The notes under the pieces were generated by a model. The model saw only the letters and a program-made list of their open reading frames with translations. It made no database searches and was not told where the DNA came from. DNA of 64,000 nucleotides from an uncultured Alphaproteobacteria bacterium (GTDB lineage Bacteria > Pseudomonadota > Alphaproteobacteria > HIMB59 > GCA-002718135), in assembly GCA_902524385.1 (NCBI GenBank), contig CABZCZ010000003.1, positions 1 to 64,000 of the forward strand, written 5' to 3'. Positions 32,018-39,465 of this stretch are shown here, in pieces (the first letter of the stretch is position 1; each line of letters starts with the position of its first letter). The translations under genes and the position numbers were made by a program.

Positions 32018-32851
32018 TTATTTATTATTTGGTGTCAATACATTTTGATGTGGCATAACTATTTTTTTTTGAAATTTTGATAATCTTGATAGAAGGTCTT
32101 TAGATGGTCTGTATGGATGTCTAAAGAAACCCCAAGAAGGTCCATATCTATAAACTACTATTCTTCTTTCACCTTTATTTATTTTTTTTGCTGATCCATG
32201 ACAGAGTGAATCAACAAATAAAAGAGCTTCTCCAGCTTTCATATAAACTTCTTTAGCTCCTGTCATACCTTCTGCAGAGGATACTTTGCCTCCTTTTAAC
32301 ATTTTATTGTCTCTAAATTCAGGATGTACAATATTTGATTTATGTGAAGATGGAATTATTACAGTACCGCCATCACCTGGACCAATATTTGTTAGAGCAA
32401 GAAGAATATTTACTTGTGAACAATGAAATTTTCCATTTTGATACCTGTAATGATTTCTTTGCAAACCTTCGGGATTACCTGAATGAATACCAATAGCTTC
32501 ACCAGGTCCACGAATATTGGCAAAGTTTTCATCTATAAAAAGAGGTCCATGAAGATGATCAAAAGTACCCTTTCCTCCAACAAAATGTAACATATGATTT
32601 ATCCATGATGGATGATCAATTAATTTTTCAAATGGTTTTCCAGCTTCATAAATTTGCTGAAGATTTAAACCCTCTTTTCCACCATAATTGTGACCATGAA
32701 CATGGCCTGCCCATTCATCATTTTTAGTATTTTTTAATTTATCAAGAATATTGTTAAGATCTTTTAGTTCTATTTTATTTAATGCATTTTTTATGATTAG
32801 GTATCCATTTAAATCAAAAAGATATTCATCAAGTTTAGAAATTTTTTTCAC
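32018..32851 (-). CDS. PhyH-family (phytanoyl-CoA dioxygenase-like) oxygenase with altered iron motif
   Basis: A cupin-fold, non-heme iron 2-oxoglutarate oxygenase-like protein of 277 residues. The family frame is clear: GYLIIKNAL at the N-terminus, NILLALTNIGPGDGGTVIIPSSHKSN (partial motif, about 148-173), the distal LLFVDSLCHGS with His218, and RRIVVYRYGPSW with the likely 2OG-binding Arg (229-230). Where canonical members have His-x-Asp, this one has IHSGN (His123-Ser-Gly125), so the iron-binding carboxylate is absent at that spot. The substrate is unknown. Linkage to sugar genes suggests a carbohydrate or a sugar conjugate. Confidence 0.8.
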   Translation of the reverse strand: MKKISKLDEYLFDLNGYLIIKNALNKIELKDLNNILDKLKNTKNDEWAGHVHGHNYGGKEGLNLQQIYEAGKPFEKLIDHPSWINHMLHFVGGKGTFDHLHGPLFIDENFANIRGPGEAIGIHSGNPEGLQRNHYRYQNGKFHCSQVNILLALTNIGPGDGGTVIIPSSHKSNIVHPEFRDNKMLKGGKVSSAEGMTGAKEVYMKAGEALLFVDSLCHGSAKKINKGERRIVVYRYGPSWGFFRHPYRPSKDLLSRLSKFQKKIVMPHQNVLTPNNK

Positions 32852-32895: not shown

Positions 32896-33960
32896 TTAAT
32901 TTATGACTGCTTTAAATTCTCCAGATTTATATTTTGTTGCCATTGCACCCAGAGAAATTGAATTTATAGAAGAAGCATTTCCTGCAGTTCCAAATTCTTG
33001 CAATCTACTTTTAACAACTTCTTTCATAGCATCCTTAGAAAGTAATAAATATTTACGAGGATCGAATTGTGAGGGATTCTCATGGAAGTATTTTCTTACT
33101 GCAGCTGTAGCAGCTAATCTTAAATCAGTATCAACGTTAACTTTTCTTACACCATGTTTTATACCCTCTTGGATTTCAGAAACTGGTACACCGTATGTCT
33201 CTTTTATTTTTCCTCCATATTCATTAATGGTTTTTATTAAATCTTGTGGAACTGATGATGAGCCGTGCATAACTAGATGTGTATTTGGAAGTCTTGAGTG
33301 TATTTCTTTTATTCTATCTATTGCTAAAATATCTCCAGTTGGTGGTCTTGAAAATTTATAAGCACCATGGCTTGTACCAATTGCAATAGCTAATGCGTCA
33401 ACATTTGTGGCTTTAACAAAATCTGAAGCTTCATCAGGATCAGTTAATAGTTTATCATGATCAAGTTTACCTTCAGCACCAACTCCATCTTCTTTTTCAC
33501 CTGTTCCAGTTTCTAAAGAGCCTAAACAGCCTATCTCACCTTCAACTGAAACTCCTAATGCATGGGCCATATCTGTTGTTTCTTTTGTGACTCTCACATT
33601 ATAGTCAAAATCTGAAGGTGTTTTTTGATCATCTAACAACGAACCATCCATCATCACAGATGTAAAACCAAGTTCTATACAATTTTTACAATCTTTTGGA
33701 GAGCCGCCATGATCTTGATGTAAAACTGTTGGGATTTCAGGAAATTCATCCATTGCTGCTTCAACTAGTTTTTTCACAAAGATAGGTCCAGCGTATTTTC
33801 TTGCAGCACCTGATGCTTGAAGTATTACAGGACTGTTTAATTCTTTCGCCCCTTCCATTATCGCTCTAATTGCCTCTAAATTATTTACATTGAATGCAGG
33901 TACACCATAATTATTCCCAGCTGCATGATCTAGGAGTTGTCTAAGTGAAATTAAAGACAT
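32896..33960 (-). CDS. fba: Class II fructose-bisphosphate aldolase
   Basis: This zinc-dependent aldolase cleaves or forms fructose 1,6-bisphosphate in the cytoplasm. The 354 residues match the Calvin-cycle (CbbA-like) subtype. Motifs are [16 protein letters not shown] (about 19-34), the zinc site [10 protein letters not shown] (about 79-88), [34 protein letters not shown] and [11 protein letters not shown]. It lies inside the sugar unit between the permeases and the oxygenase, which suggests that the imported compound is fed into glycolytic intermediates. It could equally be the cell's only aldolase. Confidence 0.94.
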
Positions 33961-33998: not shown

Positions 33999-34850
33999 TT
34001 ATCCTTTAACTGCTCCGAAAGTAAGTCCTCTAATAAATTGTTTTTGTAAAATAAAAAACATAATAACAGGAGGTAAAGCACAAACTATTGAACCTGCTGC
34101 AATTAAGTTCCAAGAAGCAACCCACTGCCCTCTTAAAGCTTGTAAACCGACTGTTACTGGCCTTACACTATCACTTTGCACTAATACCAAAGCCCAAAAA
34201 TAATCATTCCAAATAAATGTAAAAATTAAAACACCTAAAGCTGCTAAAGCTGGTCTCATTAGAGGTATAATTATTTTTGTGTATATATATACCTCTGTTG
34301 CTCCATCAGCTCTAGCTGCTTCAATTAATTCAAAAGGTAATTCTTTTATAAAATTTCTTAGGAAAAAAGTACAAAAACCAGATTGAAATGCAACGTGAAA
34401 TATTATTAATGCATACCATGTATCATACATTCCAAATTGAATTGTAATACTTCTAACAGGAACTAATAATATTTGAAAAGGAATAAAATTTCCAGCAATA
34501 AACATTGCAAATATAAACATGTTAAATTTAAACTTATGAATAGCAAGTGTAAACCCTGACATAGAGCTTATAATCAATGTTATTATTGTTGTTGGAATAG
34601 TTATTATTAAACTATTTAAAAAATATGTTGCCATGGGACTTCTTACAAAAACTTCAGAATAATTTTGTAAAAAATTTAATTCTGTTGGAATACCCCAATA
34701 ATTTCCAGCATTTAAATCTGATAGCGACCTCAAAGATACAAGCATTATTGCAATTAGTGGGAGTAACCACAAAATAACACTCAAATATAAAAATAGCCTA
34801 TATCTGTACTGATTAATTTTTGGAAGTTTCTCTACTGGTAAAGGAAACAT
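33999..34850 (-). CDS. Carbohydrate ABC transporter permease, MalG-like
   Basis: The second membrane subunit of a CUT1-type sugar importer, 283 residues with six predicted membrane helices. The EAA loop that docks the ATPase reads ELIEAARADGATEVYIYTKI near residues 190-209, and the C-terminus FIRGLTFGAVKG is the MalG-type ending. It overlaps the first permease gene by 1 bp. No ATPase gene is in the neighbourhood. Confidence 0.92.
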   Translation of the reverse strand: MFPLPVEKLPKINQYRYRLFLYLSVILWLLPLIAIMLVSLRSLSDLNAGNYWGIPTELNFLQNYSEVFVRSPMATYFLNSLIITIPTTIITLIISSMSGFTLAIHKFKFNMFIFAMFIAGNFIPFQILLVPVRSITIQFGMYDTWYALIIFHVAFQSGFCTFFLRNFIKELPFELIEAARADGATEVYIYTKIIIPLMRPALAALGVLIFTFIWNDYFWALVLVQSDSVRPVTVGLQALRGQWVASWNLIAAGSIVCALPPVIMFFILQKQFIRGLTFGAVKG

Positions 34851-35818: not shown

Positions 35819-37042
35819 TTATTTAAAAACTCTTTTACGAGTTTTATCAAGCCTAGATCTAATAGCTCCGATTCTATCAGGTTTCACCATAAATTCCTGT
35901 AAACCAGGCATTCCATCAGCATGCATATCAGGGTGAGTATCACGGTCGTAGAACTGAGCAATATCACTTGCATTACTTAAGACTTTAAATCCTTGCATTT
36001 GAAATCTGTCTTCAGGGGCTTTTGCATTTCCATTAGGAGTTAGAACACCGTTTCCAGAAGCCAGTTTATAAGCTTCCTCTGGATTTGCTAAGAAGGCGAG
36101 AAATTTTCTTGCATCTTCTTTATTTTTAGCACCACTTGGGATATGGAAAGTATCTGTAGGAGCATCTTCTGCCATGCCTATACCTTCATAAATTTTGGGA
36201 AATTGAAAATAGTCAACTTTGTCAACCATTCCGGCATCTTCAAAAAATGGAACCATAAAATTACCCATTAGGTACATAGCAGCCTCACCATTAATCATTG
36301 GTGTAATAGCTTCCTGCCAAGATAATGCTGCATGATCTTCAAGAAAATAACCTGCGTTTAATAATTCAGCCCATTTATCAAAAACATCATCAAGTCTTGG
36401 ATCCTCATAGCTAGCATCACCATTCATTAAATCCATATGAAAATCGTAGCCATTAACTCGCATATTCATATAATCAAACCAACCAGCGGCTGTCCATAAG
36501 TACCTTGTTCCGATAGTAATAGGTGTTACACCATTTTTCTTAAGCATAGCACAAACCCATTTAAACTCATCCCAAGTTCTCGGCTCATTTAAACCAAGAT
36601 CATCAAAAATATCTTTTCTGTAATAAACTCCCCACTGGTAGTAACCATATGGAACACCATACTGTTTACCATCAACTGTAAGAGCTCCTTTTGTTGCCGA
36701 CATTGAGTCGTTAAAACCAGCACTTTCCCATACGTCTGATACATCTTCAAACAATCCTTGATCGACAAAAAATTTCATTCTATTTCCTGCAAACCAAATT
36801 GCGACATCTGGTGGATCAGCTTGTAGAAAGTTTCTTATTGAAACTTTATATTCCTCAGTATCAAAATCATTTACAACAACTGTTATGTCAGGGTGAGCTT
36901 CATCAAAAGCTTTGATATAAGCATGCATAACTTCATTTGCTCTTGGGTCTGATTGGTTACTATTTATAACTAATGTTCCCGCATATGAAATTGTTGAAAG
37001 AAAAAATGTAGAAATAACTACTAAATATTTAAGTATTTTCAT
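35819..37042 (-). CDS. Extracellular solute-binding protein (family 1, sugar)
   Basis: The periplasmic receptor of the sugar importer, 407 residues. A signal peptide is clear (MKILKYLVVISTFFLS, cleavage near SYAG). The mature protein has the family-1 pattern GTLVINSNQSDPRANEVMHA, ITVVVNDFDTEEYK, YGVPYGYYQWGVYYRKD and ITPMINGEAAMYLMGNFMV. The start is placed at 37042 and not at the upstream in-frame ATG (37054), because GGGAGGT lies 3 nt before it and the signal peptide then begins correctly. It is the first gene of the nine-gene unit. Sugar specificity cannot be read from sequence. Confidence 0.92.
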   Translation of the reverse strand: MKILKYLVVISTFFLSTISYAGTLVINSNQSDPRANEVMHAYIKAFDEAHPDITVVVNDFDTEEYKVSIRNFLQADPPDVAIWFAGNRMKFFVDQGLFEDVSDVWESAGFNDSMSATKGALTVDGKQYGVPYGYYQWGVYYRKDIFDDLGLNEPRTWDEFKWVCAMLKKNGVTPITIGTRYLWTAAGWFDYMNMRVNGYDFHMDLMNGDASYEDPRLDDVFDKWAELLNAGYFLEDHAALSWQEAITPMINGEAAMYLMGNFMVPFFEDAGMVDKVDYFQFPKIYEGIGMAEDAPTDTFHIPSGAKNKEDARKFLAFLANPEEAYKLASGNGVLTPNGNAKAPEDRFQMQGFKVLSNASDIAQFYDRDTHPDMHADGMPGLQEFMVKPDRIGAIRSRLDKTRKRVFK

Positions 37043-37045
37043 TTT

Positions 37046-37052
37046 ACCTCCC
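37046..37052 (-). promoter_or_regulatory. Strong Shine-Dalgarno of the solute-binding protein gene
   Basis: GGGAGGT, one of the best ribosome binding sites seen in the window, lies 3 nt upstream of the ATG at 37042. It sits inside the reading frame of the alternative upstream ATG at 37054, so it decides the start. Confidence 0.75.
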
Positions 37053-37132
37053 ATGAAAATTGTAAATATTCTGTAACATATCTCGATGTATTTAAAATGA
37101 TAAAATTTAATATTTTAGAGAAATTATAGAAG

Positions 37133-37273: not shown

Positions 37274-38638
37274 ATGACTAAACTAACTATTATTGGTGCA
37301 GGAAGCGCAGTATTTACAAAAAATATAGTAACAGATATTTTATCAATTGATAATTTTAAACAAATGGAGATAGCTCTTCATGACATAGATCCTGTCCGAC
37401 TAAAATCATCACATGATTTATTAAACATAATTTCAAAAAAATTAGGTGCTAATCCTAAAATAACATCTCACACAAATAGAAAAGAATCTTTAAAAGGTTC
37501 AGATTTTGTGCAAACCACAATTCAAGTTGGTGGTTATAATCCATCTACAATTATTGATTTTAAAATTCCAAATGAATTTGGTTTAAAACAAACTATAGCA
37601 GACACTTTGGGAATTGGTGGCATAATGAGGGGGCTTAGAACAATTCCTGTGTTACTTGACATTGCAAATGACATAATAGAGATTTGTCCAAAAGCTATTT
37701 GGTTACAATACGTTAACCCTATGTGCTCAAATATGATTGCAATCAATAAAGCATTTCCTGAACTTAAAGTAATCGGATTATGTCACTCGGTACAAGGAAC
37801 TGCTGAAATGTTAGCAAAAGATTTAAATGAAGATATTAATAATATCGAATATCTATGTGCTGGTATAAATCATATGGCTTTCTACAAAAAATTTGAAAAA
37901 AAAATAGAGGGAAAAGCTAATGAGGATTTATATCCAAAATTAAAATTATTAGCTGACAAAATTATAAATAATGAAGAAGAGTCTTCGAGAAGCAATAGTG
38001 TTGATAATGAGTCTAATAAAATTCTCTATGAAAAAGTTCGATATGAAATTTTAAAAAGATTTGGATACTTTGTTACAGAATCAAGTGAACACTTTGCCGA
38101 ATACGTTCCATGGTTTATCAAAAAAAATAGAAATGATGTAATTGAAAAATATAAAATTCCTTTAGAGGAGTACATAGATAGATGCGAAAATAATATTAAA
38201 TTATGGAATGATTTAGAAAAAGATATGTCTTCAATTTATGATCAGCCACTTGGTAGAAGTAATGAATACGCATCCTATATTGTTGATGGAATGGTAAATG
38301 GTAATGAGATTACAATAAATGCAAACATAATGAATGAGGGATATATAGAAAATTTACCTTCAAATTGCTGCGTGGAAGTTCCTTGCATTATTAATTCAAA
38401 TGGATTTATGCCACAAAAAATTGGAAAATTACCAGAACAATTGACTGCTCTAATGAGAACAAACATAAACGTTCAAATACTTACTGCAGAAGCTGCACTA
38501 ACTAAAAAAAGAGAGCATATTTATCATGCAGCTATGCTTGATCCATTAACAGGTGCAAATTTAACAATAGATGAGATATATGATATGACTGACAAAATGA
38601 TTGAAGCACATGGCAATTACTTACCTCAATATAATTAA
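37274..38638 (+). CDS. melA: Family 4 glycoside hydrolase, probable alpha-galactosidase
   Basis: GH4 enzymes use NAD+ and a divalent metal to cleave glycosides by a redox-elimination route in the cytoplasm. The 454 residues match MelA (about 450). The Rossmann motif TIIGAGSAVFTKNI (about 5-18) and NPMCSNMIA are present. The metal and specificity motif reads GLCHSVQGTAEML (about 171-183): CHSV is typical of alpha-galactosidases, whereas alpha-glucosidases have CHEV and phospho-glycosidases have Asn or Asp there. Its stop overlaps the next gene (TAATG). It is divergent from the importer operon, so the imported compound may carry an alpha-galactosyl group. Confidence 0.88.
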   Translation: MTKLTIIGAGSAVFTKNIVTDILSIDNFKQMEIALHDIDPVRLKSSHDLLNIISKKLGANPKITSHTNRKESLKGSDFVQTTIQVGGYNPSTIIDFKIPNEFGLKQTIADTLGIGGIMRGLRTIPVLLDIANDIIEICPKAIWLQYVNPMCSNMIAINKAFPELKVIGLCHSVQGTAEMLAKDLNEDINNIEYLCAGINHMAFYKKFEKKIEGKANEDLYPKLKLLADKIINNEEESSRSNSVDNESNKILYEKVRYEILKRFGYFVTESSEHFAEYVPWFIKKNRNDVIEKYKIPLEEYIDRCENNIKLWNDLEKDMSSIYDQPLGRSNEYASYIVDGMVNGNEITINANIMNEGYIENLPSNCCVEVPCIINSNGFMPQKIGKLPEQLTALMRTNINVQILTAEAALTKKREHIYHAAMLDPLTGANLTIDEIYDMTDKMIEAHGNYLPQYN

Positions 38639-39465
38639 TGACTAAACTAACTGTTAAAGATTTATTCGATAAAAAAGGAAAAGTTAAGTTAACTGAATTA
38701 TATGTAACAAATGCTCTTGAAGCTTATGCTGCTGAAAAAGCAGGAATAGATATCCAAATTGTATCTTTTAAAAAAGAGACTCTTAGAACAGGAGTGCCAA
38801 CAAATAGATGGTTTAGAGATGCCCACATAAAGGATATTCGAGAAGCTGCACCAAATACTTTTATGATATATGGTCTTGGTCAAGTATCATCGCCTGACAA
38901 AGCTATCGATGCTGCACTAATAGCAAGAGACAATGGAGCGGATGCTGTATACTGTGGAAATAGCCCAAAATATATAGAGGCTCTTCGCAATGAAGGTTTG
39001 CCAGCAGTCAGTCATATTGGGCTAATACCTTATAAGAGTACATGGACCGGTGGCTTTAAAGCTGTTGGCAAAGATGCTGTGTCTGCATTAAAAGTTTATC
39101 AAGATGCAATTGCTTACGATAATGCTGGTGCTATAGGACTTGAGGTAGAATGTGTACCAGACCGTGTAGCTGAAATAATTACTAAGGAAGTTAATTTACT
39201 TACATTGTCAATGGGAAGTGGACCAAAATGTGATGTTGAATTTTTATTTATTCAAGATGTTATTGGCACAAATACAGAAAGAGTTCCTCGTCATGCTAAA
39301 GTATTTAAAGACACAAATGTATCTTATGAAAAACTCTTAGATGATACTATAGAAGGTTTAAAAGAATTCATTAATGATGTGAAAGAAAAAAAATTTCCCG
39401 CACCTTCTAACATTGTTGAAATTAAGGATGAAGAATTTGAAAAGTTTTTAAATCAAATTAATTAA
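38638..39465 (+). CDS. PanB-fold protein (ketopantoate hydroxymethyltransferase-like) with altered active site
   Basis: The C-terminal two thirds align by eye with PanB: SHIGLIPYKSTWTGGFKAVG (about 125-144), GLEVECVPDRVAEIIT with the catalytic Glu171, LSMGSGPKCDVEFLFIQDV and VPRHAKVFKDT. The N-terminal metal site does not. GDS is replaced by SFK (43-45), the second Asp segment by YGL (78-80) and the Glu of the EGG segment by CGN (106-108). The 275 residues and barrel fold are kept. Genuine pantothenate synthesis is therefore unlikely. It is translationally coupled to the GH4 gene, so a role in the same sugar pathway is inferred; the reaction is unknown. Confidence 0.7.
   Translation: MTKLTVKDLFDKKGKVKLTELYVTNALEAYAAEKAGIDIQIVSFKKETLRTGVPTNRWFRDAHIKDIREAAPNTFMIYGLGQVSSPDKAIDAALIARDNGADAVYCGNSPKYIEALRNEGLPAVSHIGLIPYKSTWTGGFKAVGKDAVSALKVYQDAIAYDNAGAIGLEVECVPDRVAEIITKEVNLLTLSMGSGPKCDVEFLFIQDVIGTNTERVPRHAKVFKDTNVSYEKLLDDTIEGLKEFINDVKEKKFPAPSNIVEIKDEEFEKFLNQIN

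What the first reader, a model, noticed from the sequence alone, without database searches (positions are those of the whole stretch)
32018..32851. PhyH-type oxygenase with His-x-Gly instead of the iron-binding His-x-Asp
The segment that aligns by position with HxD of EctD and human PHYH reads His123-Ser-Gly125. The distal His218 and the Arg pair remain. Loss of this carboxylate is the hallmark of Fe/2OG halogenases, where a halide fills the vacant site. It also occurs in uncharacterised oxygenase-like groups that may use other ligands. In a marine, halide-rich setting, and inside a sugar operon, either outcome would be new.
Basis: partly seen in the sequence, partly recalled or inferred. Interest (0 to 1): 0.62.

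Follow-up and report, generated by a model that had tools for sequence, protein, structure and literature searches.

The report
HygX-like oxygenase with moved iron carboxylate
A sugar-operon gene of a marine bacterium encodes an iron enzyme that lacks the usual metal-binding aspartate, but instead of a halogenase it belongs to a large, mostly unstudied clade that includes the antibiotic enzyme HygX and that always carries a new acidic residue next to its second iron-binding histidine.

Summary
The gene (minus strand, 277 aa) is PhyH (PF05721, E 2e-15) with H123-S-G125 where other PhyH proteins have HxD; H218 and the 2OG arginine R229 remain. HSG is invariant in the homologues that align there (56-98% identity, many phyla). 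The other seven PhyH proteins of the same genome have HxD. The "either outcome would be new" reading is only partly supported. The closest solved protein by sequence, by fold and by clade is HygX (hygromycin B biosynthesis). HygX also has HxG and was crystallised with iron, and with nickel plus 2-oxoglutarate, so a carboxylate-less HxG PhyH that binds metal and 2OG is already known. The HxG proteins form one clade (support 100/98). SyrB2-type halogenases lie elsewhere, so the two losses are independent. What is new here is that every one of 40 non-redundant clade members has Asp or Glu four residues before the distal His (D214 here, E202 in HygX), against 4 of 54 HxD enzymes and none of three halogenases (Ser). 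The carboxylate has probably moved rather than been vacated for halide. Best reading: a HygX-like Fe(II)/2OG oxygenase acting on a carbohydrate in a catabolic operon. Metal geometry, substrate and activity are untested.

The parts
32018..32851 (-). PhyH-family (PF05721) HygX-like Fe/2OG oxygenase, 277 aa, GTG start
32477..32485 (-). codons of H123-S124-G125 (HxG in place of HxD)
   Evidence: 86/88 homologues; invariant
32372..32374 (-). codon of D160 (GPGDGG loop); HxD PhyHs usually have Asn here (xNG)
   Evidence: Asp 31/40 in the HxG clade, Asn 46/55 in the HxD set
32210..32212 (-). codon of D214, acid 4 residues before the distal His, universal in the HxG clade; candidate relocated metal carboxylate
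   Evidence: D/E 40/40 in the HxG clade, 4/54 in HxD
32198..32200 (-). codon of H218, distal metal His
   Evidence: 40/40
32165..32167 (-). codon of R229, 2-oxoglutarate-binding Arg (H+11)
   Evidence: 39/40; 55/55 in the HxD set
32896..33960 (-). class II fructose-bisphosphate aldolase, upstream in the operon
   Evidence: TIGR01521 586.8 bits over cut-off 496.35
33999..34850 (-). sugar ABC transporter permease
   Evidence: PF00528
34850..35770 (-). sugar ABC transporter permease
   Evidence: ORF position and sequence; not scanned against Pfam; conserved in relatives
35819..37054 (-). extracellular solute-binding protein
   Evidence: PF01547
30973..32016 (-). Gfo/Idh/MocA oxidoreductase, starts 1 base after the PhyH stop
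   Evidence: PF01408, PF22725
30017..30976 (-). aldo/keto reductase
   Evidence: PF00248
29225..30001 (-). IolE-like TIM-barrel isomerase/dehydratase/lyase
   Evidence: PF01261
28104..29228 (-). second Gfo/Idh/MocA oxidoreductase
   Evidence: PF01408
37274..38638 (+). divergent GH4 alpha-galactosidase-like glycosidase
   Evidence: PF02056; NF011657 588.6 bits over cut-off 486

Best explanation
The protein is a member of the HxG clade of PhyH-fold Fe(II)/2-oxoglutarate oxygenases, of which HygX is the one solved enzyme found here. SHOWN: it has the PhyH fold, the proximal His H123, the distal His H218 and the 2OG Arg R229. It has lost the HxD Asp. It shares a single well-supported clade with HygX. 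That clade has acquired an obligatory Asp or Glu four residues before the distal His (D214). The gene is packed inside a sugar uptake and catabolism operon. INFERRED: the metal is held by H123, H218 and a carboxylate supplied from the turn before the distal His (D214), directly or through a bound water, instead of from HxD. The enzyme then uses O2 and 2OG to make a ferryl that abstracts hydrogen from a C-H next to a sugar oxygen, and OH rebounds (hydroxylation or oxidative de-alkylation of a modified sugar or glycoside). The product would be passed to the adjoining Gfo/Idh oxidoreductases, aldo/keto reductase and IolE-like TIM barrel. No halide is needed. My estimates for the steps: Fe/2OG oxygenase about 0.85; acid D214 in or touching the metal sphere about 0.5; carbohydrate substrate about 0.6; specific chemistry about 0.35.
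For: Sequence: best PDB hit HygX E 2.5e-13, 3e-17 by profile. HygX reads LYLHGGN (H102-G-G104) and NEALMHG (E202...H206). Fold: model pLDDT 86; HygX chains head both Foldseek (E 1.5e-17) and VIA-align (Z 23.6). HygX entries are titled with iron (4zpi), nickel plus 2OG (4xca) and nickel, 2OG and hygromycin B (4xcb). Tree: 39 HxG rows form one side of a branch, UFB 100 / SH-aLRT 98, 99% of bootstrap trees, including HygX and the window protein; three chlorinating enzymes group elsewhere. Relocation: -4 acid 40/40 in the HxG clade versus 4/54 HxD (Fisher p 2e-22; not corrected for phylogeny), while the +2 residue drifts among G, N, A, S, H. Only D13 and D/E214 are 100% acidic in the clade. A PF05721 census of three genomes gives the same pattern: 2 of 73 HxD-like rows with -4 acid, HxG 4 of 4. 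Human PHYH, TlxI and TlxJ, as printed, have P, G, G at -4. Operon: FBA, PhyH, Gfo/Idh and AKR are neighbours in most relatives of the same lineage.
Against: No coordinates were available, so no distance from D214 to the metal could be measured. The HygX paper (McCulloch et al. 2015 PNAS) was not readable here. From memory its abstract speaks of a variation in metal coordination in HygX, but I cannot say whether E202 is the ligand. DSSP puts residue 214 just after a strand, not in a helical turn that would guarantee its reach. The acid may be second-sphere or substrate-binding. The clade set was recruited with a profile that already contained the -4 acid. Two members (L255, L260) read HAD and keep the -4 Glu, so both acids can coexist. 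Outside the window's lineage the operon genes are not conserved, so the substrate is a guess.
Confidence: 0.5

Rival explanations
1. Fe/2OG halogenase: a halide fills the coordination site left by the missing carboxylate and is transferred to a sugar carbon.
For: HxG also occurs in a chlorinating-enzyme family member (L293, WHQGD); the setting is marine and halide-rich; some relatives carry a flavin halogenase-family gene (PF04820) near a PhyH paralogue.
Against: No match to the chlorinating-enzyme model TIGR01762. The tree places those enzymes elsewhere. They have Ser at -4 whereas this clade always has an acid. From memory, SyrB2 S231 at this position touches the bound chloride, so an acid there should repel halide. 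The nearest enzyme, HygX, is not a halogenase. The window genome has no PF04820 match.
Confidence: 0.07
2. A true two-His site: water fills the third position and D214 is a second-sphere or substrate-binding residue, with ordinary hydroxylation.
For: HygX binds Ni and 2OG without an HxD carboxylate; the -4 residue lies at the end of the strand before the distal His in the model.
Against: The -4 acid is as invariant as the distal His (40/40), more so than the Gly itself; a merely substrate-binding residue would be expected to vary over so diverse a clade.
Confidence: 0.33
3. Pseudo-enzyme or non-iron binding protein that kept the PhyH fold.
For: Loss of one classical metal ligand.
Against: H123, H218 and R229 are invariant at 56-60% identity across phyla; HygX binds iron and 2OG.
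Confidence: 0.06

Closest known systems
HygX, hygromycin B biosynthesis (PDB 4xc9, 4xca, 4xcb, 4zpi)
   Same: PhyH fold; HxG (H102-G-G104); acid 4 before the distal His (E202, H206); 2OG Arg; one clade with the window protein
   Different: About 20-24% identity; Glu rather than Asp at -4; sits in antibiotic biosynthesis, whereas the window gene is in a catabolic sugar operon; the HSG family has its own invariant residues (R114, R132, R136, R235, N148) and HygX lacks most of them
Canonical PhyH/EctD-type HxD oxygenases (human PHYH 2a1x and seven paralogues in this genome)
   Same: Fold, proximal and distal His, 2OG Arg
   Different: They have the HxD Asp (54/54) and rarely an acid at -4 (4/54)
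SyrB2-type chlorinating enzymes (TIGR01762)
   Same: PhyH fold, lack of the HxD carboxylate
   Different: Different part of the tree, Ser at -4, no match of the window protein to TIGR01762

Membership tests
PhyH superfamily (PF05721) | Pfam gathering score | tested here: met
   58 bits over 22, E 2.2e-15
PhyH superfamily (PF05721) | 2-His-1-carboxylate HxD...H motif | tested here: not met
   H123-S-G125; 86/88 relatives the same. The HygX clade as a whole shares this deviation while still matching PF05721
PhyH superfamily (PF05721) | 2OG-binding Arg about 11 residues after the distal His | tested here: met
   R229
HygX-like HxG clade | HxG at the proximal His | tested here: met
HygX-like HxG clade | Same clade as HygX in a tree | tested here: met
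   UFB 100 / SH-aLRT 98, 99% of bootstrap trees; HygX itself is a long branch
HygX-like HxG clade | Acid 4 residues before the distal His | tested here: met
   D214; E202 in HygX
HygX-like HxG clade | Binds Fe and 2OG | not testable with these tools
   Known for HygX from entry titles only
HygX-like HxG clade | Forms a sugar orthoester | not testable with these tools
   Not expected in a catabolic operon
SyrB2-type Fe/2OG halogenases (TIGR01762) | NCBIfam model match | tested here: not met
   No NCBIfam family at E 0.01; in the own-genome part only two other PhyH genes match weakly, below the cut-off
SyrB2-type Fe/2OG halogenases (TIGR01762) | HxA or HxG in place of HxD | tested here: met
   HSG
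SyrB2-type Fe/2OG halogenases (TIGR01762) | Groups with chlorinating enzymes in a tree | tested here: not met
SyrB2-type Fe/2OG halogenases (TIGR01762) | Halide binding and transfer | not testable with these tools
   Needs an assay

The most novel reading that the evidence does not exclude
A large, unrecognised clade of PhyH enzymes (dozens of copies per genome in Latescibacterota, Gemmatimonadota and some Chloroflexota, and at least one in this marine lineage) has replaced the HxD carboxylate of the iron site by an Asp/Glu from the turn just before the distal His. That gives a facial triad of altered sequence order (H ... D/E-x3-H) that opens the site to bulky carbohydrate substrates, and the window gene uses it for sugar breakdown.
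Probability: 0.42. Interest if true: 0.6.

Novelty: new member of a known kind. Interest (0 to 1): 0.42.

Why it matters
HxG in PhyH proteins is easily annotated as a possible halogenase. The clade structure and the -4 acid give a simple sequence rule that separates HygX-like oxygenases (HxG plus D/E at -4) from SyrB2-like halogenases (HxA/HxG plus Ser at -4 in the three seen here). If the acid is a metal ligand, it is a natural relocation of a facial-triad residue that a single mutant can test. The clade is expanded in uncultured bacteria whose PhyH enzymes lack known functions (noted for Poribacteria in PMC3909097).

Tried and rejected
MAFFT alignment of the window family with HxD paralogues put WHQD on the YRYQNG segment. 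It was rejected because profile-profile alignment puts H123 on the proximal His, the spacing to the next strand fits only H123, and H123 is invariant while the QN pair is not. A regular-expression search for the distal His misassigned a few rows and was replaced by HMM columns. Model coordinates are not exposed, so I could not measure the site. Papers on HygX or SyrB2 geometry were not in the library. A PF05721 census found few HxG genes, fewer than the clade profile finds in the same genomes. SyrB2 not appearing among the fold-search rows was not used as evidence.

Full report
CHECK. The gene is on the minus strand, 32851 to 32018, 277 aa, GTG start. A relative has ATG at the same place (L121). 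It is PhyH by Pfam (58 bits, cut-off 22) and matches no NCBIfam or PHROGs family. The motif is H123-S-G125, with H218 and R229/R230. In 88 non-identical related ORFs, H123, S124 and G125 are each present in 86; the two exceptions are distant PhyH paralogues. Across 32 sequences from Alphaproteobacteria, Chloroflexi, Armatimonadetes, Latescibacterota, Gemmatimonadetes and others, at 56-89% identity to the window protein, HSG is invariant. The same genome holds seven further PhyH proteins, all HxD. So the absence of the Asp is fixed in this family and is not a defect of one sequence.

WHICH HIS. A plain MAFFT alignment is ambiguous here. Profile-profile comparison with HxD PhyHs (probability 99.1) aligns H123 with the proximal His.

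NEAREST KNOWN PROTEIN. The best solved homologue is HygX (with the profile E 3e-17). Through a plasmid-borne homologue that matches HygX end to end I could read its motif: LYLHGGN, that is H102-G-G104. The AlphaFold2 model (mean pLDDT 86) matches HygX best by Foldseek and by VIA-align (Z 23.6, 3.1 A over 217 residues; the next families are close behind). The HygX entries are titled with iron, with nickel and 2OG, and with nickel, 2OG and hygromycin B. Metal and 2OG binding by an HxG PhyH is therefore known. From memory, not readable here, the abstract of the HygX paper speaks of a variation in metal coordination.

THE CLADE AND ITS NEW ACID. I collected PhyH proteins from 24 genomes of the distant relatives, which carry 5 to more than 80 PhyH genes each, and fetched 80 regions. 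Ninety-five representatives at 60% identity were placed on two profiles. In the HygX-like set the residue four before the distal His is Glu (35) or Asp (5) in 40 of 40, whereas the +2 position drifts (G 30, N 3, A 3, S 2, H 1, one gap). In the HxD set +2 is Asp in 54 of 54 and the -4 residue is acidic in only 4. In HygX it is E202, in the window protein D214. Only this column and D13 of the N-terminal FDxxG motif are acidic in every clade member. A PF05721 census of three genomes agrees: HxD-like 2 of 73 with -4 acid, HxG 4 of 4. The Asn of the xNG loop in HxD enzymes is mostly Asp (D160) in this clade. Two members keep HAD together with the -4 Glu, so the exchange is not absolute.

TREE. A maximum-likelihood tree of 94 proteins puts all 39 HxG rows, HygX and the window protein among them, on one side of a branch (UFB 100, SH-aLRT 98, 99% of bootstrap trees; the bootstrap had not fully settled). 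The three chlorinating enzymes (TIGR01762, found) fall elsewhere, among HxD enzymes. Their motifs are HQA or HQG with Ser at -4. Loss of the HxD carboxylate thus happened at least twice, with different outcomes. In SyrB2 numbering the Ser is S231 (by offset and remembered SyrB2 numbers), which I recall as lining the chloride pocket (Blasiak et al. 2006, from memory). If so, the -4 side chain points at the site left free by the missing Asp, and an acid there can take its place.

SURROUNDINGS. The gene lies 44 bases after a class II fructose-bisphosphate aldolase gene and 1 base before a Gfo/Idh/MocA gene that overlaps the aldo/keto reductase gene by 4 bases. An IolE-like TIM barrel and a second Gfo/Idh gene follow. 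Upstream is a sugar ABC transporter, and divergently a GH4 alpha-galactosidase-like gene. FBA, PhyH, Gfo/Idh and AKR recur in most relatives of this lineage, while other members place PhyH beside an Opp/Dpp-type transporter with an SDR and a GMC oxidoreductase, or beside a sulfatase. Outside the lineage the neighbours differ; some carry Opp/Dpp-type transporters or an enolase-superfamily gene (transporter and enolase names from reading the sequences). The lineage is probably AEGEAN-169/HIMB59 (inference from single-cell genome names and genome size; PMC10308909 describes its broad sugar use).

MECHANISM. Shown: fold, two His, 2OG Arg, missing HxD carboxylate, universal -4 acid, clade with HygX, sugar operon. 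Inferred: D214 completes or closely supports the metal site, and the enzyme oxidises a C-H next to oxygen in a carbohydrate so that it can enter the Gfo/Idh and TIM-barrel steps. A PhyH-family enzyme removing O-methyl from ribose was reported in 2025 (PMC12709175), which shows the chemistry is available to the superfamily.

VERDICT. Observation confirmed. The halogenase reading is unlikely but not excluded. The protein is a new member of the HygX-like kind, and the clade-wide carboxylate exchange is the most interesting point.

Noticed in passing
L024, L028, L033-L043, L055 (e.g. L039:4079-5602): A flavin halogenase-family gene (PF04820, E 1.6e-99) with the WxWxIP signature lies a gene or two from the PhyH operon or its HSG paralogue in some relatives; the window genome has no PF04820 match.
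   Followed up: partly
L024:5571, L028:5574, L033:5570, L038:5569, L043:5573: A divergently oriented second HSG-type PhyH (66-67% identity) sits about 3 kb from the first in several relatives.
   Followed up: no
Genomes of L063, L064, L066, L067, L069, L072, L073, L075, L078, L081: About 80 or more PhyH genes per 3-6 Mb genome, a large share of them in the HxG clade (26-48 profile matches per genome).
   Followed up: partly
window 38638-39465 (+): Ketopantoate hydroxymethyltransferase-like protein scoring far below the PanB cut-offs (106 of 207 bits), paired with GH4; probably not PanB.
   Followed up: no
L108 (G021:C7:269-1090): One close relative's copy of the PhyH gene has an in-frame TAA, while the same genome keeps an intact paralogue.
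   Followed up: no
L255, L260: HxG-clade members that read HAD yet keep Glu at -4: both carboxylates present, possible intermediates or reversions.
   Followed up: no
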